Source: Micromonospora peucetia
GTDB lineage: Bacteria > Actinomycetota > Actinomycetes > Mycobacteriales > Micromonosporaceae
Direction: 5' to 3'
Assembly (NCBI RefSeq): GCF_900091625.1
Contig: NZ_FMIC01000002.1
Coordinates: forward strand, 1 to 64,000
DNA: 64,000 nucleotides
A program made the translations under genes and the position numbers. Under the pieces are notes generated by a model. That model saw only the letters and a program-made list of their open reading frames with translations. It made no database searches and had not been told where the DNA came from. Below, piece by piece: positions 24,661 through 53,890 of the stretch. The first letter of the stretch is position 1; every line of letters begins with the position of its first letter.

Positions 24661-24679
24661 GGGGCTTGCGACAAGACCC
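24661..24679 (+). promoter_or_regulatory. Rifamycin-associated element (RAE)
   Basis: GGGGCTTGCGACAAGACCC is a 19-base inverted repeat matching the RAE described upstream of rifamycin-inactivating genes in actinomycetes (consensus GGGGCTTGCnGCAAGnCCC as I recall it; one mismatch in the centre). It lies 118 bp before the rph start. Confidence 0.85.
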
Positions 24680-24797
24680 GGGTTGTGCCGCAGAATCGGC
24701 GGCCGGACCAGCACCGACGAGGAAATCGGGGGTACGACGTGGGTGCGTTGTCGATGGTCATTGCGGTACGGAGCACGGCTGCCGCGGAGGTATCGCA

Positions 24798-27480: not shown

Positions 27481-28776
27481 ATGCTGGCTCCGCTGCGGTA
27501 TGGCGCGTTTCGATACCTGGCTGCTGGCCGGCTGGTCAACATGCTGGGCAACGGTGTCGCTCCCATCGCGCTGGCCTTCGCCGTGCTCGACATGACCGGC
27601 TCGATAGGCGACCTGGGTCTGGTGGTCGGCGCGCGATCGGTGATGACCGTGCTGTTCGTGCTGTTCGGCGGGGTGGTGGCCGACCGGATTCCACGTCGGC
27701 TGGTGCTGGTCGGCTCCAATGTGCTGAGTGCGCTGACCCAGGCGGCGGTGGCCGCCCTGGTGCTCACCGGCACGGCGACGATCCCGCTGCTGCTGGCGCT
27801 CGGTGCGGCCAACGGCATCGTGAGCGCCCTGTCCCAGCCAGCCTCGGCCGCCGCGACGCCGCAGACTGTGCCGCCGGAGCTGATCCAGCCGGCCAACGCG
27901 CTCATCCGGCTCGGCATCAACGCGGGCATGATCGGCGGTGCCGCGTTCGGCGGCCTCCTGGTGGCCGCCGTCGGGCCGGGGTGGGGCCTCGCCATCGACG
28001 CGCTCACCTTCGCCATCGCGGCTGTCGCGTTCACCGGAGTCCGGGTCACTGCCTCGCCGGCGAAGCGCACCCGTACGAGCATCGTCGCCGACCTCCGGGA
28101 GGGCTGGACGGAGTTCACCGCGCGGAGCTGGGTCTGGGTCGTGGTGCTCGGCTTCATGGTCCTCAACGCGGCCCTCGCTGGCGGCGTGAACGTGCTCGGC
28201 CCGGCCGTCGCGGACGAGACGATCGGCCGTAGCGCCTGGGGCATGGTGTTGGCGGCGCAAACCGCCGGCATGGTCGTGGGCGGGTTGATCGCCCTGCGGA
28301 TCCGGGTACGCCGGCTGCTGCTGCTCGGGGTGGCCTGCATGTTCGCCGAGTCGTTCCTGCTGTTGGGGCTGGCCCTGGCGCCCAACATCGTCGTGCTGTT
28401 GTCGGCCGGAGTGGCGGTCGGCATCGCCGTCGAACAGTTCGCGGTGGCCTGGGACACGTCGATCGCGCAGCAGATTCCGGCCGACCGGCTGGCCCGCGTC
28501 TACTCCTACGACATGTTGGGGTCATGGGTCGCCATCCCACTCGGCCAGATCGCGGTCGGACCGGTCGCCGCGGCGATCGGCACCCGTGACACGCTGCTGA
28601 TCCTGGCGACATTGGTGGTGCTCGCCGTCCTCGGCATGCTGGCCAGCCGGGACGTCCGCCGGCTACAGGCGGTAGCCCCCGCCCCCGCTGCCGACGCAAT
28701 GCAGACCGAGCCAGCCGACGGTGGACCGAGCGACAGCCCTACCACGAAGCCCACCGAACCAGCGGCCCGCGCCTGA
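27481..28776 (+). CDS. MFS transporter (enterobactin-exporter/MDR-like, 12 TM)
   Basis: A 431-residue membrane protein from ATG 27481, with FRYLAAGRLVNMLGNGVAPIALAFAVLDMTG as TM1, a motif A-like GGVVADRIPRRLVLV, and SQPASAAATPQTVPPELIQPANAL typical of EntS-like exporters. The C-terminus is a hydrophilic Pro/Thr-rich tail. It follows rph by 85 bp in the same direction and could share its transcript, which would pair drug modification with efflux (inference). Confidence 0.8.
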   Translation: MLAPLRYGAFRYLAAGRLVNMLGNGVAPIALAFAVLDMTGSIGDLGLVVGARSVMTVLFVLFGGVVADRIPRRLVLVGSNVLSALTQAAVAALVLTGTATIPLLLALGAANGIVSALSQPASAAATPQTVPPELIQPANALIRLGINAGMIGGAAFGGLLVAAVGPGWGLAIDALTFAIAAVAFTGVRVTASPAKRTRTSIVADLREGWTEFTARSWVWVVVLGFMVLNAALAGGVNVLGPAVADETIGRSAWGMVLAAQTAGMVVGGLIALRIRVRRLLLLGVACMFAESFLLLGLALAPNIVVLLSAGVAVGIAVEQFAVAWDTSIAQQIPADRLARVYSYDMLGSWVAIPLGQIAVGPVAAAIGTRDTLLILATLVVLAVLGMLASRDVRRLQAVAPAPAADAMQTEPADGGPSDSPTTKPTEPAARA

Positions 28777-28850
28777 CCCGGTCCCCGATGCCAACCGCGC
28801 CCCCAGTTCAGAGCGCAGCCTCAGCCGCCGCCACGCACTTCGGCTCACTC

Positions 28851-28884
28851 TTGTGGCGCTGACCGTGCGCCGGTCAGCGTCCGC
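28851..28884. repeat. Dispersed intergenic repeat with hairpin, second long copy
   Basis: GCTGACCG/CGGTCAGC inverted repeat within 27 bases that differ at one position from 10913-10939. It lies between the MFS gene and the Imm53 gene. Confidence 0.5.
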
Positions 28885-28936
28885 ACATGCCGATGAGCGG
28901 ATATGCGAGAAGAAGCGCCTCGGGCATCATGATCGG

Positions 28937-29278
28937 GTGACCGGACAAGATCCGCAGTTCTACTCCCATAAGCCCGACCCGTTGACGTGGCTTCAAGCGT
29001 GGTACGCCACACAGTGCGATGGGGACTGGGAGCACGAGTACGGCGTGTCGATCGAGACGCTTGACAACCCGGGCTGGTTCCTGAAGCTGGACTTGCAGGA
29101 AACCGCCATGGACGGCTTGACGTTTCCCAAGCGTGAGGTCCACCGAAGCCAGCACGATTGGTTCATCGCTCAGGTGGTCGAAGGCCGGTTCGAGGTCGCC
29201 TGTGGGCCACTCAATCTCGGTGAAGCGATCCACCAGTTCCGGCTTTGGGTGGCCGACCAACATCGAGGCGAGTCCTGA
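28937..29278 (+). CDS. Imm53-family immunity protein
   Basis: A 113-residue protein, most likely from GTG 28937. It matches the Imm53 family by LTWLQAWYATQCDGDWEHEYGVSIETLDNPGW (family hallmark W-x-W...CDGDWEH...I-x-TLDNPGW), then LDLQETAMDG and a C-terminal FRLWV. Imm53 proteins neutralise toxins of polymorphic toxin systems. No toxin or secretion gene is next to it; it is convergent with a SUKH gene, so this looks like an orphan immunity pair. Confidence 0.8.
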   Translation: MTGQDPQFYSHKPDPLTWLQAWYATQCDGDWEHEYGVSIETLDNPGWFLKLDLQETAMDGLTFPKREVHRSQHDWFIAQVVEGRFEVACGPLNLGEAIHQFRLWVADQHRGES

Positions 29279-38426: not shown

Positions 38427-38573
38427 GTGGCGCTCCGCACCCCGGACACACCCATCGCATACACCGCCGTCCACGATCTCGCCTTGCCGGACGGCAGCGT
38501 TTACACGTTCGTCCACGGTGCGGCCATCGCGAGCGAACAGAACGGCGCCAGAGCACTGTCGGACCGAAGCTGA
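38427..38573 (+). CDS. Small ORF in the NRPS leader
   Basis: A 48-residue frame from GTG 38427 with GAAGGGA 6 bases upstream. It reads ALRTPDTPIAYTAVHDLALP and DGSVYTFVHGAAIASE. It is not MbtH and I do not recognise it. Position (between the operon promoter and the exporter, 16 bp before the exporter start) suggests either a real small protein or a translated leader that couples exporter expression. Confidence 0.4.
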   Translation: MALRTPDTPIAYTAVHDLALPDGSVYTFVHGAAIASEQNGARALSDRS

Positions 38574-38589
38574 ACCGGTGGCGTCACGC

Positions 38590-39903
38590 ATGTCTGGTCT
38601 TTTTCGCCCTCCCGTTGCAATATCGCCGCAAGTGGGGAGGATGGCCGCGGCGAACCTGTTCGCCAGCCTTGGATTCGGGATGTACACCGCGGGAAGTGCG
38701 GTCTATTTCACCCGCCATGTCGGAATCCCGGCGTCCCAGGTCGGTGCGGGCCTCACCGCCGCCGGCTTGTTGTGGCTGCCGCTGTCGTTGTACATCGGAC
38801 GGTTCTGCGATCGGATCGGCGCTCGCACCGCGGTCGTCTGGACGGGCGCTGCTCAGGCTGTCCTGCTGCTGGCCGCCACCACCGTCCACGGTCTGGCGGG
38901 CTTCCTGATCGTGGTGACGCTGCTCGGCGTCGTCGTGCAGGGCGGATGGATCTGTCGCGAGGCGCTGGTCGCCGACGTGGTCACGGGCGACGCCCTGGTC
39001 GGGATATCCGCCTACCTTCGAAGCCTCTTCAACGTCGGAGTCATCGCGGGCGCGCTCCTCAGCGGCCTCGCCCTGAGTTGGGACAGGACCCCCGGCTACC
39101 AGGCGCTGATCATCGGCAGCGCGCTGGCCGAGGCGACGGCCGCGGTCATCTGTCTGCGGTTGCCGAAATACCGGCAGGAACATTTCGGAGTCTCGGAGGT
39201 GCCGCTCAGCGACGCGGTACGAGACGTGCCATACCTGGCACTCTCCGTCCTGCTCGGAATCCTGGCGGTGGGAGACACCATTCTGTACGTCGGCATTCCG
39301 CTGTGGGTGCTGTCTCAGCCTGCTCTCCCCCCGGGGCTGGGTGCCTGGTTGTACGGCCTCAACGCCGTCCTGGTGATCGGACTACAGGTTCGGCTGAGCC
39401 GGGCCGCTGACACCTACCGCGGGGTTCGGCGGCTCCTGATGCTGGCCAGCATCGCGACGGCCGTGTCATGTCTGGCAGTGGGGGCCAGCCAGGGGCGTTC
39501 CGTCCTGGCCGGCGTGCTCTGGCTGGTGGTCGCGGTCGTCCTGCTGTCGCTCGGTGAGGTGTGGAGTGCCGCCGCCGGTTGGAAGATCCGCTACGACATG
39601 GCTCCGCCGCAGGCCCAGGGCACCTGGGGCGGCCTGTTCGCCCTGGGCAGCTCCGTCAACCTTGTGCTCGGTCCGGTCCTGGTAACCGTGCTGACAGCGC
39701 GTTACAGCGCGATGGGCTGGGTGCTGCTGTCACTCGCCTTCGTCGCGATGACCACTGCCGTCGTGCCGGCGATGTCCTGGGCACTGCGAACCCGCGCCCC
39801 ACGGACGGGTTCGTGGCCGGAGACCACCACGGGCGGCACGGCCGAAGACCCGGCACCGTACCCGGCCGCACCCCGGAGCCCGATCCCCGATCAGAGAGGA
39901 TGA
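38590..39903 (+). CDS. MFS exporter, first large gene of the NRPS operon
   Basis: A 437-residue transporter from ATG 38590 (GTG 38581 possible). It shows RMAAANLFASLGFGMYTAGSAVYF as TM1, GRFCDRIGARTAVVWTGAAQAVLLL (motif A) and WICREALVADVVTGDALVGISAYLRSLFNVG, with about 12 helices and a Pro-rich hydrophilic tail. It is 6 bp from the A-T gene and in the same direction, so it is almost certainly part of the same operon and the likely exporter of the product. Confidence 0.82.
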   Translation: MSGLFRPPVAISPQVGRMAAANLFASLGFGMYTAGSAVYFTRHVGIPASQVGAGLTAAGLLWLPLSLYIGRFCDRIGARTAVVWTGAAQAVLLLAATTVHGLAGFLIVVTLLGVVVQGGWICREALVADVVTGDALVGISAYLRSLFNVGVIAGALLSGLALSWDRTPGYQALIIGSALAEATAAVICLRLPKYRQEHFGVSEVPLSDAVRDVPYLALSVLLGILAVGDTILYVGIPLWVLSQPALPPGLGAWLYGLNAVLVIGLQVRLSRAADTYRGVRRLLMLASIATAVSCLAVGASQGRSVLAGVLWLVVAVVLLSLGEVWSAAAGWKIRYDMAPPQAQGTWGGLFALGSSVNLVLGPVLVTVLTARYSAMGWVLLSLAFVAMTTAVVPAMSWALRTRAPRTGSWPETTTGGTAEDPAPYPAAPRSPIPDQRG

Positions 39904-39909
39904 ACGACG

Positions 39910-41679
39910 TTGGCGCACGAAGGTTCACCGACGCTCGACGTGGCAGACGCGATACTCCGCCGTGCTCAGGATGACCCGGATCGGCCAGCCGTTGCCGACG
40001 GCCACGGGACCTGGACCTACCGGGAGGTCAGCCGACACGCGCGCGCCATCGGAGCCGGTCTACGTGACACCGGCGTCAGGACCGGGGACATCGTCGTGGT
40101 CCAGGGACACAGCAGCCCTCGGACCATCGCCACGTTGCTCGGGGTCCTGCTCGCCGAGGCGACGTACCTCGTGGTGGACGGTGAACTGCCAGCCGGCCGG
40201 CTCGCCCACGTGTTCGGCGAGGCATCGCCGCAGGTGGTGATCGCCGACGATCCCGGCATGTTCTCGTCCACCGGCGCCAGGATCGTGACCCACGACGAGG
40301 CCGGGCAGTGGCACCCGGCCGGCACGGACAACGTCTTCGCCACCGTGCCGCGACACCTGCCCGGCTACGTGGTCTACACCTCCGGCACCACGGGCCTACC
40401 CAAGGGCGTGGTGATCAGCAGAGGTTCGCTCGCCTGGCACTCCTCGGCCGTACGGTCGCTGTTCGGCCTGTCCGCGAGTGACCGGGTCCTGCAGGCCGCT
40501 TCCTTCGCGTTCGACGTGGCGGCGGAGGAGATCTGGCCGACCCTGTGCGCGGGCGCCTGTGTCGACATCCTGCACGGCGGGTTGAGGGCGATGAGCTACG
40601 CGGAGCTGACGAGGACCGTCCGCGATCGAGGCATCACCGTGGTCAATCTGCCTGCCTCATACTTCAGTGGCTGGGCGGAGTACCTCCACCAGACCGGGCA
40701 GCTGCTCCCTTCCCTGCGACTTGCGGTGACCGGCAGCGAGGAGTTGCCCGCGGACACCGCCAGGAACTGGTGCTCGACCGGTACGCGCCCGCGGCTCATC
40801 AACGCGTACGGGGTCTCCGAGGCCACGATCACCTCCGTGGCCTTCGAGGTGCGGCCGGAGGCGATCGTCGACGATCGGGTGCCCATCGGAACGCCGTTGC
40901 CCGGTGTGCGTGCGGTGATCGTGGACGACCAGGGGGAACCGGTCGCGCCGGGCTCCGACGGGCAACTGCTCCTCAGTGGGCCGGGAATTGCCATCGGCTG
41001 TCTCGGCACCGATCCGGCACCCGCTGAGCGGTTTCCGCCGACCGCGACCGGCGACGCCGAGCACGGCTACCTGACCGGGGACCGCGTACGCGAGGAGAAC
41101 GGCCTGCTGTACTTCCTCGGCAGGACAGACGATCAGATCAAGGTCAACGGGGTACGCATCGATCCCGGCGAGATCGCCGCGGTGCTGGCCGGTGGGAGCG
41201 GAATCACCGACGCCAGGGTGATGAAGATCGGTGACCGGATCGTGGCGTGTGTACGCGCCCACGACGACATCGACCCGGAATCTGTCCTGCTCCAGTCGGG
41301 CGCCGTGCTGCCGTCGGTGATGGTCCCCGATGAACTGGTGGTCCTCGCCGAGTTCCCCCTCACCGCAGGGGGGAAGGTCGACATGGGCTCGCTGCGGGCG
41401 ACAGTCGAAGCGAGGCTGGCCGCGGGGAGCACCGCCGAGGCGCAGGAGGACCTCAGCGAGATCCTGCGACGGCTCTGGCGGGAGGCGCTGGGGACGTCCG
41501 ACATCGACGCGCACACGGACTTCTTCGCGCTGGGTGGCGACTCGCTGGGAGCGGCCCGGCTGTCCGGCGCCCTACGCCGGGAGACAGGCCTGGGCTGTCA
41601 CACGAGGAGCGTCTTCGCCCATCCGCGCTTCGACGACTATCTCCACTACCTCCGGCTTCTTCGGGCCGGGCGGGTCTGA
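39910..41679 (+). CDS. NRPS loading protein, adenylation-thiolation (A-T)
   Basis: A 589-residue didomain protein from TTG 39910, 9 bases after AGAGGA. The A domain (about 10-505) has A3 YTSGTTGLPKGV, A4 FAFDVAAEEIW, A5 NAYGVSE, A7 YLTGDRV, A8 GRTDDQIKVNGVRIDPGEI and A10 LTAGGKVD. The T domain (about 510-585) has FFALGGDSL with the phosphopantetheine Ser 545. It begins directly with the A domain, so it loads the first residue. Aligned to GrsA, the pocket reads D-V-E-N-A-T-A-I-T-K; Asp 235 equivalent means an alpha-amino acid, and the acidic Glu may favour a basic or hydroxylated side chain, but I cannot assign it. It must act in trans with the next gene. Confidence 0.9.
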   Translation: MAHEGSPTLDVADAILRRAQDDPDRPAVADGHGTWTYREVSRHARAIGAGLRDTGVRTGDIVVVQGHSSPRTIATLLGVLLAEATYLVVDGELPAGRLAHVFGEASPQVVIADDPGMFSSTGARIVTHDEAGQWHPAGTDNVFATVPRHLPGYVVYTSGTTGLPKGVVISRGSLAWHSSAVRSLFGLSASDRVLQAASFAFDVAAEEIWPTLCAGACVDILHGGLRAMSYAELTRTVRDRGITVVNLPASYFSGWAEYLHQTGQLLPSLRLAVTGSEELPADTARNWCSTGTRPRLINAYGVSEATITSVAFEVRPEAIVDDRVPIGTPLPGVRAVIVDDQGEPVAPGSDGQLLLSGPGIAIGCLGTDPAPAERFPPTATGDAEHGYLTGDRVREENGLLYFLGRTDDQIKVNGVRIDPGEIAAVLAGGSGITDARVMKIGDRIVACVRAHDDIDPESVLLQSGAVLPSVMVPDELVVLAEFPLTAGGKVDMGSLRATVEARLAAGSTAEAQEDLSEILRRLWREALGTSDIDAHTDFFALGGDSLGAARLSGALRRETGLGCHTRSVFAHPRFDDYLHYLRLLRAGRV

Positions 41680-41702
41680 CCGTGTGCGCCGAGGAGGCGA
41701 AC

Positions 41703-44700
41703 GTGCCGCCGATCAATCACCCGATGTCGTTCGAGCAGGAGTCGATCTGGCTCAACGATCAGTTCCGTGAGGGCCGCTCGCTCTACCTGGAATCGTGGGC
41801 CTACCGGTTGCGGGGTCGGCTCGACATCGCCGCCCTCGAAGCCGCGGTCTCCGAGATCGTCCGGCGCCATGAGGGGCTGCGGAGCCGGCTTCACCTGGTC
41901 GGGGATCGCCCGGTCCAGACCGTGTCGCCGGCTCGGCCGGTGCGACTGATCAGACGCCCGGTGCCCGTTACACGGCTGCCGGAGGCCGTCCGGGAGGCGT
42001 TGTCCGAACCGCTCAGCCTTGATCTCCCGCCGCTGCTGCGGGCCCATCTGTTCGAGTTGGGCGAGAACGACGCCGTGTTCATGGTGACCATCCACCACGC
42101 GGCCCTGGACGGTACGAGTATCCGGGTGTTCGACCGCGAGTGCGGCGCGCTGTACCGCGATGCGGTCGAGGGCGTCGCGTTCACGCTGCCCGGCCTGTCT
42201 CAGCAGATCGGCGGCTACTCCGCCCGGCAGAGGCGGGCGGAGCGGTTGGTGGGACCCGCCAACCTGGCGTACTGGAAGGCCGCCATGGAGGGCGCACCGC
42301 GAGAATCCGTGCTGCCCGTCGACCGTCCCAGGCCGCACATGCCGAGTCATCAGGGCGCAGAGATCCGGTTCCGGGTGCCGGACGACGTCGCCCGAGGTGT
42401 CCGGCGACTGGCACAGGAACAGCGGACGACGCCGTACCTGGTCATGCTGACCGCCCTGACCGTTCTCCTGCACCGCCTGAGCGGACAGCACGACCTCGTC
42501 CTCGGCACTCCGGTCTCGATGCGGGACGCTCCCGCGTTGGACTCCCTCATCGCCTGCTTGGCCGAGGTTCTCCCGTTGCGCCTGCGAGTCACCCCGGCAA
42601 CGACCTTTGCGACGATGCTCTCCTCGTCCCAGGAGGTCGTCCTGGACGCTGTCGACCATCGTGAGATCCGATTCGGTCAGCTGATCAGCCAGCTGGGCGT
42701 CGAGCGCGCCCTCGGCCGTTTCCCGCTCTTCCAGGTCGTCTTCACCGCGGAACACACGGAACCCGCCGGCCTGTCGCTACCCGGAATCGTGGCGGAGCCG
42801 TTCCCTGTGCACAGCGGCACGGCGAAGTACGACATCTTCATGAACGTCGTTCCGGATGGGGAGGGCTTCCGCGGTTCGCTGGAGTACGCGACCGATCTGT
42901 TCGACCGGGAGAGCGCCGAACGTCTGGTCGAGCGCTACCACACCGTGATCGCGGATGCTGTTTCCCACCCGGGCCGCCTGGTCGGTGACCTGGCTGTCCT
43001 GCCACAGCCGGAACGTGAGTTCATCCGCCGGACCTGGACGCACCGCGGCCTGCCCGAAGCAACGCAACCGCTGCTGCACGAGGCGTTCACCGCATCGGCC
43101 CGGCAGCATCCGGACCTGCCCGCGGTCGTTCTGGGAACGGCGAGCCGGTCGTACGCCGAAATCGAAGCGGCCTCCGACGCGCTCGCCGCGCTGCTCGTCC
43201 GGTCGGGCCATGCCGGTCGGGCTGTGGCGATCTGCCTGCAACGGTCCTTCGACCTCCCCGTCGCGGTGCTCGCCGTGCTCAAGGCCGCAGGTGTCTGCGT
43301 GCCGATCGATCCGGCGTATCCCGGCGAACGGAAGGCCTTCATGCTGCGCGACAGCGGAGCGACGGTGGTACTCACCGACCACGCCCGGGCCGGTCGGATC
43401 CCGCTGCCGGACGGCGTCGCGGAGATTCTCGTGGACGATGTTCCGCTTCCTCGCCCGACTGCGGGCGAGGTCGGATCACCGTATCCGGTCTGCGCCGAAA
43501 GCCTTGCCTACGTGCTCTACACGTCCGGTTCCACGGGGCGGCCCAAAGGTGTGGCCATGCCGCACGGCTCCCTGGCCAACCTGGTCGACTGGCAGCGTCG
43601 CCGGTCGGGCTGCGGCCCGGGCGCCCGCACCCTCCAGTTCGCGCCGCTGAGCTTCGACGTGGCATTCCAGGAACTCTTCTCCACCTGGGCGTCCGCCGGC
43701 ACCGTCGTCCTGGTGGAGGAAGAGGCCCGCACGAACCCGGAACACCTGTACGACGCACTGATCGAGCAGGGTGTCGAACGGATCTTCCTGCCCTTCGTGG
43801 CCCTACAGCAACTGGCCGCGTACGGCAGCACCGCACGGCGTGCCTGTCCGTCGCTGAAAGAAGTGATCACCGCCGGGGAACAGCTCTTCATCACCCCGGC
43901 GATCAGGGAGTTCTTCACGGACCTCACCGATGCGTACCTGGAGAACCAGTACGGCCCCTCGGAAACCCACGTCGTCACCGCGGAACGTCTCATCGGGCAT
44001 CCGGCCAGCTGGCCCCGGCGGCCCCCGATCGGCCGCCCGATCGACGGGGTCCGAACGTACGTCATGGATGATCGGCTGCGTCCGGTGCCGATCGGATCGA
44101 CGGGGGAACTCTGCATCGGGGGCCGGGCGCCCGCCCGCGGCTACCTCGGTCGGCCGGACCTTACCGCGGAGAAGTTCCGGGTCGACCCGCACGCGTCTGG
44201 ATCCGGCCGCCTCTACCGCAGCGGCGATCTGGCGCGGCTCCTGCCGGACGGCCGTATCGAGTTCATCGGCCGGGCGGACGACCAGGTCAAGATTCGCGGC
44301 CACCGCGTCGAGACGGGCGAGGTCGAGTCGGCCGTCAGAGCCGTCGCCGGGGTGGTGGACGCGATCGTCGCCGCCGCCGCCGACGAGCCCGGCGACGGCG
44401 GGCGGCTGATCGCCGGATATCTCACCACGGCGACCGGCGGTGTGACGCCGGACAACCTGCGTGCGACGCTGCGAGACCGCCTTCCCACATACATGGTGCC
44501 GGCCGTCTGCGTTCCGCTCACGTCGTTCCCGCTGACACCGAGCGGCAAGGTCGACCGAGCGGCCTTCGTCGGTACAGCACTCGCCGCGACATCGTCCGGT
44601 GCCGGGTCCGAGGGCCCTCGGACCACCACTGAGAAACGCATCATCGTCGAGTACGCCCGGGTGCTGGACCTCGTAGAAGTCGGCGTCGAGGACGACTTCT

Positions 44701-46043
44701 TCCAACTGGGCGGCGATTCGCTGCGGGCCGTGAAACTCGCGCTCGCTCTCCGCGCCGAACTCGGTGTCAATCTGCCGATGAACGCCGTGTTCACCGCGCC
44801 GTCCGTCGCCGCTCTTGCCGTCCTCGCCGACAGTCTCGACGAGCAGCAGGAGGACATCGTTCCGACTGCGGACATCGCGCTTCCCACGGAGATCGCTCCC
44901 ACGCCACCGGTGGTACCGGTCGCCTCGGACCCGCGGGAGATTCTCCTCACCGGCGCCACCGGCTTCCTGGGCGCGTTCCTCCTGCGTGAACTGATCCGAT
45001 CCACGACAGCCAGGGTGCACTGTCTCGTCCGCGGGGACGACATGACCGGGGCGGCGCGCAGGCTACGGGCGGTGCTTGAGGGGTACGGCATCTGGGAACC
45101 GGCGATGGGAGCTCGCATCGAGGTGCTGCACGGAGACCTGGCAAGGCCCGGGCTCGGTCTGTCCCCGGAGATCCTCGACGGGCTGGCGCGGACGGTTGAC
45201 GTGATCTACCACTCCGGCGCCGCGGTCAACCTGGCCCAGTCATACGCCCAGTCCCGGGCCGCCAACGTCATGGGCACGACCGAGATACTGCGGCTCGCCG
45301 CAGCCAGGCGTACGGTCCCGGTCCACCACATCTCCACGACGGGCGTGTTCGCCGGTCCACTGGTCACGGGCCGCCGGATCACCGCGGACGAACCGCTCAC
45401 CCCACTCGACGGACTCATCCACGGTTACACCCGAAGTAAATGGGTGGCCGAAAAGGTGATCGATGCCGCTCGCGGTCGCGGGCTTCCGGTATCGGTGTAC
45501 CGGCCGACCCGTATCTCGGGGCATTCCAGGACGGGGGCCTGTCAGAGCGCGGACTATCTGTGGCTGCTACTCAAGGGCTGCATCCAGGCACGGCTCGCGC
45601 CGCGACTCAGGGACGTGGCCTTCGATCTCGTGCCGGTGGACTACGTGAGCCAGGCCATCGTCGCCTTGTCCACCAGCACCGCAGCCGCTGGCCGTAACGT
45701 CACCCTCGCCAGTGACCAGCTGCTGCCATTCGGCACGGCGCTGGAACACCTGCGGGCCATGGGATACCCGATCGCGACCGGGTCCGATCAGGAGTGGATG
45801 AAGGCCATTGCGACGATGCCGGACAATGCCGCGTTTCCGCTGCTCGGAGTCATGTCCGGCGACGGCCAGGACAGTGATCAGGAAGGCAGCACGCGTTTCG
45901 ACGCCACAGAGACCGGCCGGCTTCTCGGCAGTACCGACATCGCCTGCCCGGAAATCGACGAAAGACTCTTCGGCACCTACGTTCGCTACTTCCTCGACTC
46001 CGGATTCCTTCCGCACCCGCAGAGAGAGACCACGAAGCGTTGA
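41703..46043 (+). CDS. NRPS module with terminal reductase, C-A-T-R
   Basis: A 1446-residue protein; GTG 41703 after GAGGAGG is preferred over GTG 41682. C domain: HHAALDG at 131-137. A domain: A3 YTSGSTGRPKG at 606-616, A4 LSFDVAFQELFSTW (Asp 652), A5 NQYGPSETHVV, A8 GRADDQVKIRGHRVETGEVE. T domain: FFQLGGDSL with Ser 1006. R domain: Rossmann GATGFLG at 1084-1090, GDLARPGLGL, and the SDR pair Y1242/K1246 in GYTRSKWVAEK. Pocket code D-V-Q-F-I-A-Q-V-V-K is one change from the proline code. It condenses the residue carried by the A-T protein with a prolyl-like residue and releases the thioester by NAD(P)H reduction to aldehyde or alcohol. Confidence 0.93.
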   Translation: MPPINHPMSFEQESIWLNDQFREGRSLYLESWAYRLRGRLDIAALEAAVSEIVRRHEGLRSRLHLVGDRPVQTVSPARPVRLIRRPVPVTRLPEAVREALSEPLSLDLPPLLRAHLFELGENDAVFMVTIHHAALDGTSIRVFDRECGALYRDAVEGVAFTLPGLSQQIGGYSARQRRAERLVGPANLAYWKAAMEGAPRESVLPVDRPRPHMPSHQGAEIRFRVPDDVARGVRRLAQEQRTTPYLVMLTALTVLLHRLSGQHDLVLGTPVSMRDAPALDSLIACLAEVLPLRLRVTPATTFATMLSSSQEVVLDAVDHREIRFGQLISQLGVERALGRFPLFQVVFTAEHTEPAGLSLPGIVAEPFPVHSGTAKYDIFMNVVPDGEGFRGSLEYATDLFDRESAERLVERYHTVIADAVSHPGRLVGDLAVLPQPEREFIRRTWTHRGLPEATQPLLHEAFTASARQHPDLPAVVLGTASRSYAEIEAASDALAALLVRSGHAGRAVAICLQRSFDLPVAVLAVLKAAGVCVPIDPAYPGERKAFMLRDSGATVVLTDHARAGRIPLPDGVAEILVDDVPLPRPTAGEVGSPYPVCAESLAYVLYTSGSTGRPKGVAMPHGSLANLVDWQRRRSGCGPGARTLQFAPLSFDVAFQELFSTWASAGTVVLVEEEARTNPEHLYDALIEQGVERIFLPFVALQQLAAYGSTARRACPSLKEVITAGEQLFITPAIREFFTDLTDAYLENQYGPSETHVVTAERLIGHPASWPRRPPIGRPIDGVRTYVMDDRLRPVPIGSTGELCIGGRAPARGYLGRPDLTAEKFRVDPHASGSGRLYRSGDLARLLPDGRIEFIGRADDQVKIRGHRVETGEVESAVRAVAGVVDAIVAAAADEPGDGGRLIAGYLTTATGGVTPDNLRATLRDRLPTYMVPAVCVPLTSFPLTPSGKVDRAAFVGTALAATSSGAGSEGPRTTTEKRIIVEYARVLDLVEVGVEDDFFQLGGDSLRAVKLALALRAELGVNLPMNAVFTAPSVAALAVLADSLDEQQEDIVPTADIALPTEIAPTPPVVPVASDPREILLTGATGFLGAFLLRELIRSTTARVHCLVRGDDMTGAARRLRAVLEGYGIWEPAMGARIEVLHGDLARPGLGLSPEILDGLARTVDVIYHSGAAVNLAQSYAQSRAANVMGTTEILRLAAARRTVPVHHISTTGVFAGPLVTGRRITADEPLTPLDGLIHGYTRSKWVAEKVIDAARGRGLPVSVYRPTRISGHSRTGACQSADYLWLLLKGCIQARLAPRLRDVAFDLVPVDYVSQAIVALSTSTAAAGRNVTLASDQLLPFGTALEHLRAMGYPIATGSDQEWMKAIATMPDNAAFPLLGVMSGDGQDSDQEGSTRFDATETGRLLGSTDIACPEIDERLFGTYVRYFLDSGFLPHPQRETTKR

Positions 46044-47331
46044 GCACACACCTTTCGCCGCCACGCATCCTGATGCTCGGTGGCACCACGACCAGCACTC
46101 GCAAGGCGGCCGAATGCGGCCTGTCCGTCGTCAACGTCGAGAAGGCCGGTCTCTTCGAACCCGACGCCCGGGGTACTGCGCGCAAACCCACCTGATCGAC
46201 TATCAGGACATCCCGCTGGTGACGGCTCTGGCCAGGACACTCCATGAGCTTGCCCCGTTCGCGCGGGTGATCAGCCACACCGAGGCCGGGCCGCTGGTCG
46301 CCGGCCACCTCACCACCGTCCTGGGGCTCCCTGGCAACGGCACCCGGGTGACCCGGCTGCTGCACGACAAACTCTCCCTTCGCGCGGCACTCAACGCGGC
46401 CGGAATCGGCCCGGTCAAGGCCGAACCGGGCACGTCCCGCGAAGCCCTCATGGACTTCGTCGCCCGCAACGGCGCTGCGGTGGTGAAGCCGACCATGGGA
46501 TCGGGCAGCCTCGGCGTACGGAAGATCCGTTCTGTTGCCGAAGCGGCCGAGAGTTGGGAATGGCTGACCTCATTCGGACTACGACAGTTCATGGTCGAGG
46601 AACTGCTGGACGGCACCGAGATCAGCGTCGAGACGTTCTCCGACGCCGGCCGGCACACCGTGCTGGCCGTCACCGGCAAGGACATCGGCGACGGTGTCGT
46701 GGAGCTGGGGCATGTCGTCCCGGCGGCGTTGAGCGAACACCAGACCGCGGAGGTCGTAGCGTTCACGCAGGACGTGCTGAATGCCATCGGGCTCGTCGAG
46801 GGTGCCAGCCACACGGAGATCATCCTCACCCCGAGCGGCCCCCGGGTGGTGGAGTCCCACAACCGGTGCGGCGGCGACCACATCGTCGACCTCGTCGAGA
46901 TGGTGCGCGGCGTCGACCTCGAACGGCTCACGTACCAGTTGGCTCTTCCCGCCGGGGTCGCCCCGTTCACCGCCACGGACGAGGGCGCTGCCGCCATTCG
47001 CTATCTCACCCCGCCCGCCGGACGCATCGAGTCAGTGATTGGAATCGACCAGGCACGCGATGCCGAGGGAGTGGTGAAGGCCGAGGTCACGGTCGAACCC
47101 GGGCAGACCGTCCGGCCCCTGCTCTGGTCGGAGGATCGGTGCGGCCTGGTCATCGCCCGTGCCGAGCACAGCGCCGAAGCCGTAGAGCGCGCCCGACGCG
47201 CTGCGGACCTGATCCGGATCCACACCACGCCGGCCGCGCCGCCGCCGGCGACGACCATGGGCGATCTCCTGTCCAAGGCCGACGAGGTCCTGGATCCCTT
47301 CATCACCGAGGCGGCCACATCGACACGCTGA
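46040..47331 (+). CDS. ATP-grasp ligase, L-amino-acid-ligase-like, one apparent frameshift
   Basis: The TTG start overlaps the NRPS stop (TTGA). The first 42 codons (PPRILMLGGTTTSTRKAAECG) run into a stop unless one G is restored in the GGGG at about 46170-46173; the frame then reads YCAQTHLIDYQDIPLVTALAR and on to 47331, about 430 residues. ATP-grasp features: GAAVVKPTMGSGSLGVRKI, FMVEELLDGTEISVE, GASHTEIILTPSGPRVVESH, NRCGGDHIVDLVEMV; a C-terminal AAIRYLTPPAGRI resembles the L-amino-acid ligase C-terminal domain. It should join a carboxylate to an amine with ATP through an acyl phosphate, either before loading or on the released NRPS product. Confidence 0.82.
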
Positions 47332-48176: not shown

Positions 48177-49406
48177 CTACGCTGTGCGGAGTGCTTCGTT
48201 GGGTGTGAGTCGGGTGGCTCGCCAGGCGGGGTAGGCCCCGGCGATGATTCCGACGGTGAGAGCGAGTGCGGGTGCGGCGACGACCGCGGTGATGGGAAGA
48301 GCCGCGGCCTGCGCGTTGACTGCGGCATAGCCGATGGTGGCCAGGACGCCGATGCTGATGCCGACGGTCGCGCCTATGGCGGCGAGAGTGAGCGCCTCGA
48401 AGATGAACTGAGTGGCGATGTGTGTGCGTCGCGCTCCGAGGGCGAGCCGGAGTCCGATTTCGCCACGACGTTCGACGACGGAGACGATCATGGTGTTGGC
48501 GATGCCGACCCCACCGATCAGGAGCGCGATTGCGGCAAGGGCCGTGGCGAGGTTGGTAAGGCTGGTGTCGGCGAGTTCGCGCACGTCGGCATAGTCGGAG
48601 AGCTGGGACACTCCGACGTACTGGGGTGCGGCGGGATTGGCGGTACCGGCGAGCACGGGACGCACCTGAGCGGCGGTGCCGGGGTGGGTGTTCACGTAGA
48701 TCGTGGCGATGCTGCCTGGTGTGGCGCCGGTGGCGTCGGTGAACTGCCGCCAGATGGTGTCTCTGGCCCAGTCGTCGCCGAGGAAGACGGCGTGGTCGAT
48801 ACCGTCTGCGAGGACGACCGGGTGCAGAACGCCGATGACGGAGTGCCACTGGTCGGCGACCCAGATGCGCTGTCCGGGGTAGGCGATGCCGAGCGCCGTG
48901 GCGGCTTGTGATCCGAGCACGACGGTCGGGAGGATGCGGCTGGCGTTGCTGAACCACTGCCCCCAGGCCAGGTCGGCGTCGATCGCTGCCGGGAGACCGG
49001 GGCCTGCGGCCTGGACGAGCAGTCCCCTGGTCTGGTTGATCGGGACGCGATCGGTGCGGTATGCACGCACCGTACTGGGTACGGCATACACCGCGGCGGC
49101 ATTCGTGACGGGGGCGATGCGTTCGATCATCTCCAGCGCCGTGGCGGGCAGCGGTACGGTCTTGTCGTTGGTGTCCTTCCCGGGCTCGACGGTGAGCAGG
49201 TTCGCGCCCATGCGATCGAGCTCGTTCAGATACTGGGCCTTGTTGGAGCCGGCGACGCCGGTGATGGCGACGAGAGCGGCGATGCCGATCGCGATCCCGA
49301 TGGACGACAGGACAGTACGCAGCGGTCTTGCCCAGGTTCCGGCGGTGGCATCGTCGAGGAGGTCTCGGATGCGGATCCGGATCGGACGAAGGTCAGAGAT
49401 GCTCAT
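48177..49406 (-). CDS. MacB/FtsX-type ABC permease
   Basis: A 409-residue permease from ATG 49406. The order is TM1 (LRTVLSSIGIAIGIAALVAITGVAG), a large extracytoplasmic domain (residues about 60-280), and three C-terminal helices around LIGGVGIANTMIVSVVERRGEIGLRLALGAR, the FtsX hallmark. It works by mechanotransmission rather than classical transport. It is the last of four genes (lipoprotein, adaptor, ATPase, permease); the starts of ATPase and permease overlap the preceding stops by four bases. Confidence 0.88.
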   Translation of the reverse strand: MSISDLRPIRIRIRDLLDDATAGTWARPLRTVLSSIGIAIGIAALVAITGVAGSNKAQYLNELDRMGANLLTVEPGKDTNDKTVPLPATALEMIERIAPVTNAAAVYAVPSTVRAYRTDRVPINQTRGLLVQAAGPGLPAAIDADLAWGQWFSNASRILPTVVLGSQAATALGIAYPGQRIWVADQWHSVIGVLHPVVLADGIDHAVFLGDDWARDTIWRQFTDATGATPGSIATIYVNTHPGTAAQVRPVLAGTANPAAPQYVGVSQLSDYADVRELADTSLTNLATALAAIALLIGGVGIANTMIVSVVERRGEIGLRLALGARRTHIATQFIFEALTLAAIGATVGISIGVLATIGYAAVNAQAAALPITAVVAAPALALTVGIIAGAYPAWRATRLTPNEALRTA

Positions 49407-50095
49407 GCGGTGGGCGCCCCGGTATCGGTGGTGACGCGGCCGTCGCGGATTCGGACCCGACGCGGCATCGGGTCGGCGATGGCGTGGTCGTGGGTGATGA
49501 CGATGACCGCCGTTCCGGAGCGGGCGATCTCACTGAGCAGACGGATGATGTTCTCCCCGGTGGCCGTGTCGAGGGCACCGGTGGGTTCATCGGCGAACAC
49601 GATGCTCGGCTGCTTGACGAGTGCGCGGGCGATGGCGACGCGCTGTTTCTCGCCTCCGGAGAGCTGCCCGGGCCGATACCGGGTGCGATGGGCCAGCCCG
49701 ACGGCTTCGAGGGCGTCTCGGGCGTGACGGAGGCGTTCAGCGTGTCCGGCGCCGGTGTAGAGCAGTCCGGTCGCGACGTTCTTCTCTGCCGTGAGGGTGG
49801 GAATGAGGTGAAACTGTTGGAACACGAAACCGATGTGCCGTGCCCGCAGTGCCGCACGCTGCGCATCGCCGAGTCGAGCGACCGGGTAGCCCCGCAGACG
49901 CACCGTTCCGCTGGTGGGGTCTTCGAGGGTGCCCATGATCGAGAGTAGAGTCGACTTGCCCGACCCGGACGGTCCCACGACGGCGACCAACTCTCCGGCC
50001 CGCACTGCCAGGTTGGCTGCGCGAAGTGCGTGTGTCGGCGGGTCGGTGGGATACGTCTTGGACACCTCCTCGACGGTGAGGACGGGTTCGGTCAT
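49403..50095 (-). CDS. MacB/LolD-type ABC ATPase
   Basis: A 230-residue ATPase from ATG 50095: Walker A VGPSGSGKSTLLSIMG, Q-loop FVFQQFHLIP, signature LSGGEKQRVAIARAL, Walker B IVFADEPTGALD and switch His in VIVITHDHAIAD. It energises the adjacent permease. Overlaps the adaptor stop by four bases. Confidence 0.92.
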   Translation of the reverse strand: MTEPVLTVEEVSKTYPTDPPTHALRAANLAVRAGELVAVVGPSGSGKSTLLSIMGTLEDPTSGTVRLRGYPVARLGDAQRAALRARHIGFVFQQFHLIPTLTAEKNVATGLLYTGAGHAERLRHARDALEAVGLAHRTRYRPGQLSGGEKQRVAIARALVKQPSIVFADEPTGALDTATGENIIRLLSEIARSGTAVIVITHDHAIADPMPRRVRIRDGRVTTDTGAPTA

Positions 50096-51132
50096 GGCGC
50101 CACCACCTCCTCTCCTTCTTTGATGTCGCCGGTGATCTGTAGTCGAGAATCGGCGACCAGCCCCACCTTCACGGGCACGAGGACACGTTTACCGTCTCGG
50201 AGCACTTCGACGCCGTACCCACCGTCGGCCAGGGCGAGCAGCGCGGTGACCGGCACGACGAGGGCTCCGTCGACGGTGTCACTGGGGATGGTGACCCGCA
50301 CCGCGGAGAGGCCGATCCTTGACACCGGAGACTGGTCGGCGAATTCGACTACCGCACGGTCCGGTAGTAGTTTTCCGTCCTTGTCGGACCCGCGGTGCTT
50401 CTGGATCTGGGTGATCTGAGCGCCGATGGTCGACCCGTCGGGCAGTGCCACGGTCACCGGTTTCCCGGGCATCAACGATCCGGCCTGCGCGGTGCTGAGG
50501 TTGGCGAACGCGAGGACGGCGGTGTCGGTGTAGTCGAGGATGTCGCCGTTGGCGGATGCCCCGAGCTTCACGTGAATGGTCTCGACCCGGATCGCATCCG
50601 CCTTGGTGACGACGGCATCGCCTGGGGCGAACACACCGGTGCGTTTGACGCGGAGGGAGTCCTGCCAGCGCTTGATCGCCAGGGCGGTGGACCGGGTGAA
50701 CGTGTCATCCACGGTGAGACCCGCACTGGAGCCCAGCTTGACAAGATTCCGTTCGAGTTGGCGCACGTCCTCACCCGGGCTCACGCCGGTTCTGAGCTCG
50801 CGCCAGAACGGCCGGGCACCTTTCAGGAGCACGACGGGTCGCCCGTCCGTCTCGTAGACGCGTTGGCCGACCTTGACCACCTTCCCGAGGGGTGGCAGCA
50901 CCGTGAGGATGCCACCGCCGCCACCGATGAGAGTGTCCGGGTCGCCGTAGCTGAGCTGTGCGTTCAGGATCGTGTTCGACGTCAATGCCTCTCGCATGAC
51001 CGTCTGGGTGTTCACCTTCGGCCCCGGTAACGCGGCGTCCTTCCGCCAGGGCTGCCATACGTAGGCGGCGGCCACAGTACCGAGCACCAGGACGGCGGTC
51101 GCAGCGGCGGCGACACGGATACGGCTTCGCAC
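50092..51132 (-). CDS. Periplasmic-adaptor-like protein with peptidoglycan-binding-like domain
   Basis: A 346-residue protein from ATG 51132 with an N-terminal membrane anchor (VAAAATAVLVLGTVAAAYVW). It has HlyD/MacA-like features (LPPLGKVVKVGQRVYETDGRPVVLLKG) and a PG_binding_1-type insert (DVRQLERNLVKLGSSAGLTVDDTFTRSTALAIKRWQD). Gram-positive members link the MacB-like pump to the cell wall. The operon and divergent two-component system suggest response to cell-envelope stress or antimicrobial peptides. Confidence 0.82.
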   Translation of the reverse strand: MRSRIRVAAAATAVLVLGTVAAAYVWQPWRKDAALPGPKVNTQTVMREALTSNTILNAQLSYGDPDTLIGGGGGILTVLPPLGKVVKVGQRVYETDGRPVVLLKGARPFWRELRTGVSPGEDVRQLERNLVKLGSSAGLTVDDTFTRSTALAIKRWQDSLRVKRTGVFAPGDAVVTKADAIRVETIHVKLGASANGDILDYTDTAVLAFANLSTAQAGSLMPGKPVTVALPDGSTIGAQITQIQKHRGSDKDGKLLPDRAVVEFADQSPVSRIGLSAVRVTIPSDTVDGALVVPVTALLALADGGYGVEVLRDGKRVLVPVKVGLVADSRLQITGDIKEGEEVVAP

Positions 51133-51144
51133 TGATCGCCTCGC

Positions 51145-51801
51145 CTAGGAGTTCGCGCCATCGATGATGCGTGAGTACAGTTCCTCGCTCCAGGCTGGGT
51201 CGAACGCGCCCGTGAAGTTCGGGGCAACGAACGTGCCCTTCTTTTCGCCGGCCGGTATGATCGTCTTTTTGCATGCCGTGAACATGGCGAAGAACTGTTC
51301 CTTCGTCGTTCCGGCCGGCACTGCCATCTCCGCGGACGCACCCTCCGGATCGGGGAACGCGGCGATGCCGTTCTCCCTGGCACACTTCGCGAACGCACGA
51401 GACGCCTCCGCCAGGGCCGGGTCGGTCCCGTCGTCGTTGCGTGGCGGCTCATACTGGGGCACTCTCGCCCGGCAGACCTTCTCGGCAGCCGCGAACAGTT
51501 CGGCCGCTGCTCCGTCGAACTTGACCGCGCCGGGGCTACTGTTTCCCTGAGCGGAATCAATCGAAATACCCGGTCCGACATGGCCATCCGGCCCGACCAT
51601 CACGTTCTGCACCCCTTCGGTGCGCAGACAGTCCGCGTACGCTTCCGCTCCCGCCTTCGCATCACCCTTGGCCACGGGCACGTCGCCGGCGGAAGGCACC
51701 TCGGGCGTGGACGTGCAGCCGGCAAGGGTGAGAGCTGCGGCAAGCGCGGCTCCCGCGACGAACAGTCTCGTCGTGGCTGGCCGGTGGTCGTTGCTGAACA
51801 T
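51145..51801 (-). CDS. Secreted lipoprotein of the MacAB-like operon
   Basis: A 218-residue protein from ATG 51801. The signal peptide is FVAGAALAAALTLAGC (lipobox), after which come two related stretches with conserved Cys (EAYADCLRTEGVQNVMVGPDG and SRAFAKCARENGIAAFPDPEG) and a FTACKKTI segment. Such lipoproteins are usually found in operons with MacAB-like pumps in actinobacteria. First gene of the unit, divergent from the response regulator with a 134-bp control region. Confidence 0.75.
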   Translation of the reverse strand: MFSNDHRPATTRLFVAGAALAAALTLAGCTSTPEVPSAGDVPVAKGDAKAGAEAYADCLRTEGVQNVMVGPDGHVGPGISIDSAQGNSSPGAVKFDGAAAELFAAAEKVCRARVPQYEPPRNDDGTDPALAEASRAFAKCARENGIAAFPDPEGASAEMAVPAGTTKEQFFAMFTACKKTIIPAGEKKGTFVAPNFTGAFDPAWSEELYSRIIDGANS

Positions 51802-51935
51802 GGTCTGTCCTCCCTGACGGGTTCGCATCCCGCTGTCGCGGGATCGGTCAGGAGAAGTTCTAGACGGTCGGCGGTCAGCGAACGGTCAGCGCGTTCCTGA
51901 CCGTTCCCTTACCTTCCGGACCGGACAATGGGGCG

Positions 51936-52598
51936 ATGAGAGTGCTGATCGTGGAAGACGAGATCGACCTCGCCACGAGCCTGGCCGAAGGGCTACGCGC
52001 CGACGGATACACGGTCGACGTCGCTCACGACGGTGCGACCGCGCTCAGCCGGATTCAGCTCGGCGATCCGGATGTGATGGTGCTGGACCGCAACCTGCCC
52101 ATCCTCGACGGTGACACCGTCTGCCGAACCCTGTCGGCCATGCGCCACCCGGTACGCATTCTCATGCTGACCGCCGCTGCCGGACTTGACGACCGCGTCG
52201 AAGGCCTGGACCTCGGGGCGGACGACTACCTCACGAAACCCTTCGCCTACCGTGAGCTGACCGCCCGTATCAACGCCCTCACCCGCCGACTCGACCCCGG
52301 TGACACCTCCCGCAGCGTTGCGGACCTCGTCCTGGACACCGCCGGGCAGAAGGTGACCCGACGTGGAATGCCGGTGCGCCTCAGCACCAAGGAGTACGCG
52401 GTGCTCGAAGCCCTGGTTGTCGCCAACGGAGGCCTCGTGACCTATCGGCAGCTCATCGACCATGCCTGGGACGAGGACTACGACACCGAACGCGCCGCCG
52501 TGAAGATGGCCGTCTACGCCCTCCGCCGTAAGCTCGGCACACCGGACCTGATTGTCGCTGAGCACGGACGCGGCTATCGAATCGAGGCCCCATCATGA
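51936..52598 (+). CDS. OmpR-family response regulator
   Basis: A 220-residue regulator from ATG 51936. The receiver domain has VEDEIDLATSLAEGL, phospho-acceptor Asp 51 in VLDRNLPILDGD, LTAAAGLDDRVEGLDLGADDYLTKPF (conserved Thr and Lys). The C-terminal winged helix contains MPVRLSTKEYAVLEALV and AVKMAVYALRRKLG. It probably controls the divergent efflux operon. Overlaps the kinase gene by four bases. Confidence 0.93.
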   Translation: MRVLIVEDEIDLATSLAEGLRADGYTVDVAHDGATALSRIQLGDPDVMVLDRNLPILDGDTVCRTLSAMRHPVRILMLTAAAGLDDRVEGLDLGADDYLTKPFAYRELTARINALTRRLDPGDTSRSVADLVLDTAGQKVTRRGMPVRLSTKEYAVLEALVVANGGLVTYRQLIDHAWDEDYDTERAAVKMAVYALRRKLGTPDLIVAEHGRGYRIEAPS

Positions 52599-53890
52599 GT
52601 CGACGTACGCCCCGCCTGCACAGCTTCCGCACCCGACTCACCGTGACCTTCACCGCAGCGTTTCTCACCGCCGGAATCGTCCTTCTCGCCGTCGTCTATC
52701 TCGCTGTGGCTCACCTGTTCGACACCGCTCAGCACGGCGGGATCAATGAGGTCATCAGCACCGACGGCACGGTGGTCGCATGGCAGAGCAGCGAACCGCT
52801 ACTCGAACCGGGTTCCGTCACATACCCCAACGGGCTGCCGGCGGGAGGGATCCAAGGAGTCATCGATCGGACCCAGATCACGCTCCGCGACGACATACTC
52901 GCCGGCCTCGTGTGGTGGTGTCTGGGAATCCTCGCCGTCTTCGCCGTCTTCGCGGCTTTCGCCGCATCCAGGCTCTCCCGAGCCGCGCTTACCCGGATCG
53001 CCAACATCACCTCATCCGCTCGCTCCATCACCCAGCACCAACTCGACGCACGGCTGAACCTGCCCGGCCCGACAGACGAGATCAAAGAACTCGGCGACAC
53101 GATCGACCAGATGCTTGACCGGCTCGAAGATTCGTTCGCCCGGCAACGTGAGTTCATCGCCAACGCATCCCACGAACTGCGTACCCCGGTCGCGACAGCC
53201 CGCACGGCCCTCGAAATCCCCCTCGAACAGGGACGAGTCCCAACCCAACTCGAACCAGCCGTCACCCGTGCGCTCACCGCGACCAAACGCAGCGAGACCA
53301 TCCTCAATGCCCTCCTGGATCTCGCCCGTGCCGAAACCTCCCAGCTGGGGAAGCCAGAGCCGATCGACCTGGCTGCGGCAATCCGCGAAACCCTGACCGA
53401 CCTCGACGGGCTGATCGCCAGCCGCGGTCTGGACATAACCGTCGAGACAACGGACCGGCAGCTCACCGCGGACAAGACTCTGATCGAACAGTTCCTTCGC
53501 AACGCCATCATCAACGCCGTACGACACAACATCGACAACGGCGAAGTCGACATCCAGACCCAGGCCCGCGTCGACGGAATCGACATCGCCATCTCGAACA
53601 CCGGGGAATCCATCGACCCCGACACGATCGACGATCTCACCGCACCCTTCAACCACGGCAGAACCACTCGCCTCGCCCAAGAGCAGAACCCGGGCTACGG
53701 GCTGGGCCTGGCCATCATGAAGCGCATCATCGAACGCCACAACGGCACACTGACCATCACCCCCCGGGAGAACGGCGGCCTCGTCGTTCACGCCCACGTG
53801 CCGGACCACGCCTTGGCCAAGGCGTTGCCGGTGAGATCGGCATGCCAGGAAGTAGGACAGACGGGGGCGAGTCGCGTGCTCCACCGCTGA
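52595..53890 (+). CDS. Sensor histidine kinase
   Basis: A 431-residue membrane kinase from ATG 52595. TM1 (FTAAFLTAGIVLLAVVYLAVA) and TM2 (LAGLVWWCLGILAVFAVFAAF) frame a short extracellular sensor of about 65 residues. HAMP follows, then HisKA FIANASHELRTPVATARTAL with His 193, N-box RNAIINAVRHN, and G-box NPGYGLGLAIMKRI. The short sensor loop is typical of kinases that read membrane or transporter state. The C-terminal 25 residues extend past the usual end. Confidence 0.92.
   Translation: MSRRTPRLHSFRTRLTVTFTAAFLTAGIVLLAVVYLAVAHLFDTAQHGGINEVISTDGTVVAWQSSEPLLEPGSVTYPNGLPAGGIQGVIDRTQITLRDDILAGLVWWCLGILAVFAVFAAFAASRLSRAALTRIANITSSARSITQHQLDARLNLPGPTDEIKELGDTIDQMLDRLEDSFARQREFIANASHELRTPVATARTALEIPLEQGRVPTQLEPAVTRALTATKRSETILNALLDLARAETSQLGKPEPIDLAAAIRETLTDLDGLIASRGLDITVETTDRQLTADKTLIEQFLRNAIINAVRHNIDNGEVDIQTQARVDGIDIAISNTGESIDPDTIDDLTAPFNHGRTTRLAQEQNPGYGLGLAIMKRIIERHNGTLTITPRENGGLVVHAHVPDHALAKALPVRSACQEVGQTGASRVLHR

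What the first reader, a model, noticed from the sequence alone, without database searches (positions are those of the whole stretch)
38427..47331. Compact A-T / C-A-T-R / ATP-grasp locus predicted to make a reductively released prolyl-type dipeptide
Seen: an A-T protein, a C-A-T protein ending in a full thioester reductase, an L-amino-acid-ligase-like ATP-grasp gene overlapping its stop, and an exporter 6 bp upstream, all in one direction. Known: R domains release NRPS thioesters as aldehydes or alcohols, and A-T plus C-A(Pro)-T-R is the core of pyrrolobenzodiazepine and tilivalline assembly. Here there are no anthranilate genes and the first A domain keeps the Asp that binds an alpha-amine. 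Inference: an aminoacyl-prolinal (or its cyclic imine/pyrazinone), possibly extended by the ATP-grasp ligase. I do not know a described product with this gene set; peptide prolinals are a plausible prolyl-peptidase inhibitor class.
Basis: partly seen in the sequence, partly recalled or inferred. Interest (0 to 1): 0.88.

Follow-up and report, generated by a model that had tools for sequence, protein, structure and literature searches.

The report
Uncharacterised prolyl-dipeptide gene cluster with ligase
A four-gene set in an actinomycete looks built to join an amino acid (probably a basic one) to proline, cut the product off as an aldehyde or alcohol, decorate it with a separate ligase and pump it out; the same set occurs in some Streptomyces, but the ligase gene is out of frame in this copy.

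Summary
In detail: exporter, A-T, C-A-T-R and ATP-grasp ligase lie in one direction, separated by 6 nt, 2 nt and a 4-nt overlap. One thing was missed: the ATP-grasp frame slips near 46171-46174, so the window carries it in two pieces; a 99% identical intact relative exists. The C-A-T-R A domain reads DVQFIAQVVK, a proline-type code. The A-T code DVENVGAITK is identical in 17 of the 22 best homologues. It keeps the alpha-amine Asp and has Glu at 239, so I predict a basic or amide side chain (ornithine or lysine first); anthranilate is strongly disfavoured. Three fetched Streptomyces loci keep the four genes in the same order, and the ligases linked to such NRPS genes fall on one side of a fully supported branch. 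So this is a real, conserved, sporadic cluster family, not chance. The product remains inference: X-prolinal, its cyclic imine, or X-prolinol. The closest solved reductase whose outcome I recall makes an alcohol, so the aldehyde is not assured. The ligase probably acylates a free amine; its substrate is unknown. I found no described product in the searches named. Parts are known, the combination seems undescribed: a new variant of a known kind.

The parts
38590..39903 (+). MFS exporter (start chosen at ATG 38590; ORF open from 38401)
   Evidence: PF07690 82 bits; 59-66% identical genes at the same place in L001-L003
39910..41679 (+). A-T protein (loading module), TTG start; code DVENVGAITK
   Evidence: PF00501 226 bits, PF00550 48 bits; code; 55-56% identical in L001-L003
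41682..46043 (+). C-A-T-R protein, GTG start; A code DVQFIAQVVK; terminal thioester reductase
   Evidence: 60-63% identical over full length in L001-L003
46040..46195 (+). ATP-grasp ligase, N-terminal piece (frame a; homology ends near 46174, frame stops at 46193-46195)
   Evidence: P0004 residues 1-34 match 46073-46174 at 100% in this frame
46171..47331 (+). ATP-grasp ligase, main piece with LAL_C2 (frame b)
   Evidence: P0004 residues 34-419 match 46171-47328 at 99%; LAL_C2 84.5 bits, ATP-grasp_4 58.7 bits

Best explanation
A two-module NRPS pathway. The A-T protein loads an L-amino acid with a basic or amide side chain (ornithine or lysine first guess; inferred from the code). The C domain of C-A-T-R joins it to proline held on the second carrier (proline by code; condensation inferred from an intact HHxxxDG). 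The R domain uses NADPH to release X-prolinal, which closes to a bicyclic imine through the free alpha-amine, or is reduced further to X-prolinol (inferred). The ATP-grasp ligase activates another amino acid as acyl phosphate and joins it to a remaining free amine, most simply the side-chain amine of X (inferred, least certain). The MFS protein exports the product (inferred). In this strain the ligase reading frame is interrupted, so the last acylation may be missing unless the slip is an assembly error.
Confidence: 0.55

Rival explanations
1. The R domain works by four-electron release and the product is an X-prolinol (amino alcohol), not an aldehyde or cyclic imine; the ligase then acylates the amine. 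(The rivals listed are not mutually exclusive.)
For: Of the solved R domains found, MxaA (4u7w, 276 bits) is second only to 8v1x (336 bits), a chain named type I polyketide synthase; MxaA gives a primary alcohol (recalled). Over the whole protein NCBIfam MxcG (705 bits) outscores AusA (531 bits), both far below cut-off; MxcG can give an alcohol (recalled).
Against: Sequence does not decide between two- and four-electron release; the outcome of 8v1x was not looked up.
Confidence: 0.3
2. A relative of pyrrolobenzodiazepine or tilivalline assembly, loading an anthranilate.
For: A-T plus C-A(Pro)-T-R architecture.
Against: A1 keeps D235; no anthranilate or kynurenine family among 37 window proteins scanned with Pfam.
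Confidence: 0.03
3. In this strain the locus is decaying and makes nothing finished, because the ligase is out of frame.
For: Two-frame split while a near-identical protein is intact.
Against: The slip lies in a G-rich run where assembly errors are common (my judgement); the NRPS genes are open and carry the motifs named.
Confidence: 0.25
4. The A-T protein loads glutamine or a glutamate-semialdehyde-type residue rather than a basic one, giving an Ahp-like or other cyclised unit.
For: DVENAGVVTK at the Ahp position of cyanopeptolins shares 7 of 10 positions with DVENVGAITK.
Against: The substrate of that cyanobacterial domain is not stated in the paper's text, where glutamine and ornithine do not occur; different phyla and contexts.
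Confidence: 0.25

Closest known systems
Aureusimine/phevalin synthetase AusA (A-T-C-A-T-R; product class recalled)
   Same: Two modules, dipeptidyl thioester, reductive release
   Different: One polypeptide there, two here; 531 bits against a cut-off of 2500; proline second; ATP-grasp partner
Pyrrolobenzodiazepine / tilivalline NRPS pairs (recalled)
   Same: Separate A-T and C-A(Pro)-T-R proteins
   Different: A1 keeps D235; no anthranilate genes seen in the window
Small peptide aldehydes: leupeptin, antipain, flavopeptin, livipeptin (PMC10548850, abstract and passages seen)
   Same: NRPS or NRPS-like protein with R domain, aldehyde warhead, accessory amide-forming enzymes
   Different: Livipeptin uses an A-T-R protein without C and a tRNA-dependent transferase; the words ATP-grasp, ligase and prolin- do not occur in the main text of that paper
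ATP-grasp L-amino acid ligases (BL00235, RizA, BacD/YwfE)
   Different: 17-21% identity; NCBIfam BacD 42 bits against 850; linked to an R-domain NRPS
Belactosin/cystargolide ligases BelU, CysD (PMC11427300, passages seen)
   Same: ATP-grasp ligases completing a warhead peptide late in the pathway
   Different: In the passages seen, no NRPS with R domain takes part; beta-lactone warhead

Membership tests
NRPS with terminal thioester reductase | C-A-T-R domains with intact HHxxxDG, carrier Ser, GxxGxxG and YxxxK | tested here: met
   TIGR01746 309 bits above cut-off 213
NRPS with terminal thioester reductase | Product released as aldehyde or alcohol | not testable with these tools
   needs an assay
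Pyrrolobenzodiazepine/tilivalline assembly | First A domain activates an anthranilate and lacks Asp235 (recalled definition) | tested here: not met
   D235 in P0002 and in all 22 homologues examined
Pyrrolobenzodiazepine/tilivalline assembly | Anthranilate-forming genes nearby | tested here: not met
   none among 37 window proteins; my gene finder lists 61 candidates in the window; rest of the genome not checked
Pyrrolobenzodiazepine/tilivalline assembly | C-A(Pro)-T-R second protein | tested here: met
   (proline by code only)
Aureusimine synthetase AusA | NCBIfam equivalog cut-off | tested here: not met
   531 bits, cut-off 2500
Myxochelin synthetase MxcG | NCBIfam equivalog cut-off | tested here: not met
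   705 bits, cut-off 2300
ATP-grasp L-amino acid ligase | Fold and LAL_C2 domain | tested here: met
   LAL_C2 84.5 bits; fold of intact relative P0004, though purine-pathway ATP-grasps score close behind
ATP-grasp L-amino acid ligase | Intact gene in this window | tested here: not met
   two frames
ATP-grasp L-amino acid ligase | Forms an amide bond between amino acids | not testable with these tools
   needs an assay
Leupeptin-type cluster | Same gene set as the leup operon | not tested
   that operon was not fetched; the passages seen name leupA without its enzyme type

The most novel reading that the evidence does not exclude
A new actinomycete natural-product family in which an NRPS pair and a free-standing, co-inherited ATP-grasp ligase together make an aminoacylated basic-residue-prolinal (or its pyrrolopyrazine imine): a hybrid of thioester-template and free-acid peptide assembly, acting as an inhibitor of proline-specific peptidases.
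Probability: 0.25. Interest if true: 0.7.

Novelty: new variant of a known kind. Interest (0 to 1): 0.45.

Why it matters
If right, a compact set of four genes would encode a reactive small peptide of a class (prolinals) known as inhibitors of prolyl peptidases (recalled) but not tied to a bacterial gene cluster in the searches I ran. The fixed, unassigned loading code DVENVGAITK and the linked ligase group give two directly testable enzyme activities, and the Streptomyces relatives give other copies to work with.

Tried and rejected
PBD/tilivalline reading: disfavoured by D235 and by the absence of anthranilate genes among the 37 window proteins scanned. A programmed frameshift in the ligase: judged unlikely, because all 24 rows of alignment A1 run across the slip point as one protein; they are database predictions, and their DNA was not inspected. 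Anti-phage reading of the ligase: no PADLOC match. Viral contigs: no match to the C-A-T-R patterns. Plasmids: A-T matches in 79 records, all below 60% identity, at most 37% in the 15 shown; ligase matches in 40 records, up to 59%, in other contexts such as a gene set with sulfation and sugar genes on an S. albidoflavus plasmid. Substrate of A1 from literature codes: four searches; some searches gave only DVENAG (Ahp) and DVQFVAQVV (Pro), and one search added no code. Text searches for leupeptin with thioester reductase, ATP-grasp with peptide aldehyde, thioester reductase or reductive release, and prolinal with NRPS returned none, one or two papers each; I saw passages of three of those (PMC10548850, PMC11480411, PMC11427300) and only the listing of PMC10676414, and none of what I saw describes this gene set. 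The library holds only open-licence papers, so this is no proof of absence. PMC9866976 was opened for codes and held none of the terms. Genus search with A-T in 392 genomes gave 0 without a positive control and with 3 candidates scored per genome.

Full report
What is there. Four genes run in one direction: an MFS exporter (38590-39903), an A-T protein (39910-41679, TTG start), a C-A-T-R protein (41682-46043, GTG start) and an ATP-grasp ligase (from TTG 46040 to 47331). Gaps are 6 nt, 2 nt and a 4-nt overlap. Pfam and NCBIfam confirm the domains: Condensation 246 bits, AMP-binding 237 and 226, PP-binding 50 and 48, NAD_binding_4 223, thioester reductase TIGR01746 309 bits (cut-off 213), LAL_C2 84.5 bits (cut-off 29.4), MFS_1 82 bits. 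Condensation, carrier, nucleotide-binding and adenylation motifs are present. A guessed short-spacing pattern for the reductase Ser-Tyr-Lys found nothing; in the alignment, ST and YxxxK of the R domain stand opposite those of MxaA.

The ligase is not one open frame. The frame that begins at 46040 ends at a stop at 46193. An intact relative, P0004, matches the window in two frames: residues 1-34 at 46073-46174 (100%) and residues 34-419 at 46171-47328 (99%). P0005 and P0010 show the same two-frame pattern. So this copy carries a frame slip near 46171-46174. It may be a real mutation or an assembly error; I cannot tell. P0004 differs from the window's own reading at a few residues and is listed without source, so which strain it comes from is not known to me.

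Host. The window is the first 64 kb of contig 2 of a 7.37-Mb genome. In one search a genome of the same family, G976, has a contig of 9228054 bases, the length listed for the Actinoplanes sp. N902-109 protein P0080, so the family is probably Micromonosporaceae (inference). Among 151 genomes searched with the ligase (own, 90 of the same genus, the rest of the order; 12 candidates scored each), 108 had some match, but the best outside the own genome was 40% identical and no listed row exceeded 43%. At E<=1e-90, 2 of 354 family genomes matched: the own one and G976 at 52% (5 scored each). G976 has a C-A-T NRPS (30-37% identical) beside its ligase and no R-domain match in the 18 kb held. With A-T, 1 of 396 phylum genomes (the own one) matched at 1e-120 and 0 of 392 of a Streptomyces-like genus at 1e-110, 3 candidates scored each. 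The locus is rare and sporadic.

Relatives. One scan of named genome contigs with a 24-row ligase alignment gave 61 loci. Three of the 61 (L001 Streptomyces sp. sk2.1, L002 S. hilarionis, L003 Streptomyces sp. HD) hold MFS, A-T, C-A-T-R and ligase in the same order, at 61-66%, 55-56%, 59-68% (by domain) and 62-68% identity; the other 58 showed no R-domain match, though several loci are cut by contig ends. In L003 the C-A-T-R and ligase overlap by 4 nt, and so do the ligase and the next gene, as called by my simple gene finder. Protein searches, of which the 120 best rows are shown each time, add further Streptomyces and Actinoplanes. For P0004, P0005, P0007, P0008, P0009 and P0013 the contig length equals that of an A-T or C-A-T-R hit, which I take as linkage without having fetched them. 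In a tree of 40 ligases (21 of the 61 loci and 19 listed proteins, chosen by me), the 9 rows counted as linked fall on one side of a branch with 100/100 support, against 18 unlinked loci; 13 rows bear no label and the program warned of long branches among distant rows. Identity alone does not mark the group: P0014, at 62%, falls outside it.

Extra genes. L001, L002 and L003 all hold a TauD-type dioxygenase, a TPP enzyme of the acetolactate-synthase type (718 bits to NF005760 for L001) and a divergent 2-hydroxyacid-dehydrogenase-like gene; a zinc alcohol dehydrogenase is whole in L001 and L002 and seen as a 33-residue end in L003. None of these matches the window. The own genome has only a weak TauD match elsewhere; I did not look for the other three there. 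So the window has the four-gene core alone.

Codes. With PheA numbering (fragment checked against 1amu), A1 reads DVENVGAITK in the window protein and in 17 of the 22 best-ranked homologues, one of which (P0124) is a 99% copy; the other 5 differ at one or two places. A2 reads DVQFIAQVVK, and DVQF(I/V/L)(A/S)(Q/H)VVK in all 17 homologues under 1650 aa among the 21 best hits. PMC9113097 (passages and Table 7 seen) gives DVQFVSQVMK of the telomycin synthetase and DVQFVAQVVK of a relative in S. formicae as Pro; DVQFIAQVVK itself was in no paper searched. For A1, text searches found only DVENAGVVTK, the Ahp position of cyanopeptolin in PMC2533009 (passages seen). From memory, E239 with N278 or S278 also marks ornithine and lysine pockets; that is recall, not a test. 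Four fused A-T-C-A-T-R relatives (P0252, P0253, P0255, P0257) keep the proline code at the end but begin with DAL(A/T)(L/V)GG(V/I)FK, so the proline-reductase half pairs with different loading modules.

Reductase outcome. The R domain is closest among solved structures to 8v1x (336 bits) and MxaA 4u7w (276 bits). MxaA makes an alcohol, as I recall. So prolinol is a real rival to prolinal. If the aldehyde is formed, the free alpha-amine of the first residue should close on it to a six-membered imine (chemistry, inferred).

Verdict. A real, conserved, probably undescribed cluster family made of known enzyme kinds. My searches of open-licence papers found no product with this gene set; MIBiG was not available.

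Noticed in passing
24666-27395 (+): Rifamycin-inactivating phosphotransferase, 1638 bits to NF041857 (cut-off 999), followed by an MFS gene at 27481-28776 and an Imm53-domain protein at 28721-29278.
   Followed up: partly
46040-47331 (+): The ATP-grasp gene is in two frames here, intact in a 99% identical relative.
   Followed up: yes
L001 11299-15662; L002 11299-15707; L003 1-2428 and 11263-12207: Streptomyces relatives carry alcohol-dehydrogenase, TauD, TPP-enzyme and hydroxyacid-dehydrogenase-like genes around the core, in two different arrangements.
   Followed up: partly
P0252, P0253, P0255, P0257: Fused A-T-C-A-T-R proteins with a proline-type last A domain and a different first code, DAL(A/T)(L/V)GG(V/I)FK.
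   Followed up: partly
L094 (stretch of an S. albidoflavus plasmid of 438,721 bp): A 59% identical ATP-grasp sits among sulfate-activation, sulfotransferase, nucleotide-sugar and NRPS genes.
   Followed up: no
14626-16161 (+): Transposase-like gene with integrase core and Mu-transpos_C_2 domains.
   Followed up: no
48177-53890: MacB/FtsX permease gene (-) with an ABC-ATPase-like gene beside it, next to a response regulator and sensor kinase pair (+); the last three judged from the translations only.
   Followed up: no
G000:C2:4807973-4830190: NRPS matches in an open frame of 8033 residues; the genome is rich in NRPS-type matches (88 to the C-A-T-R protein).
   Followed up: no
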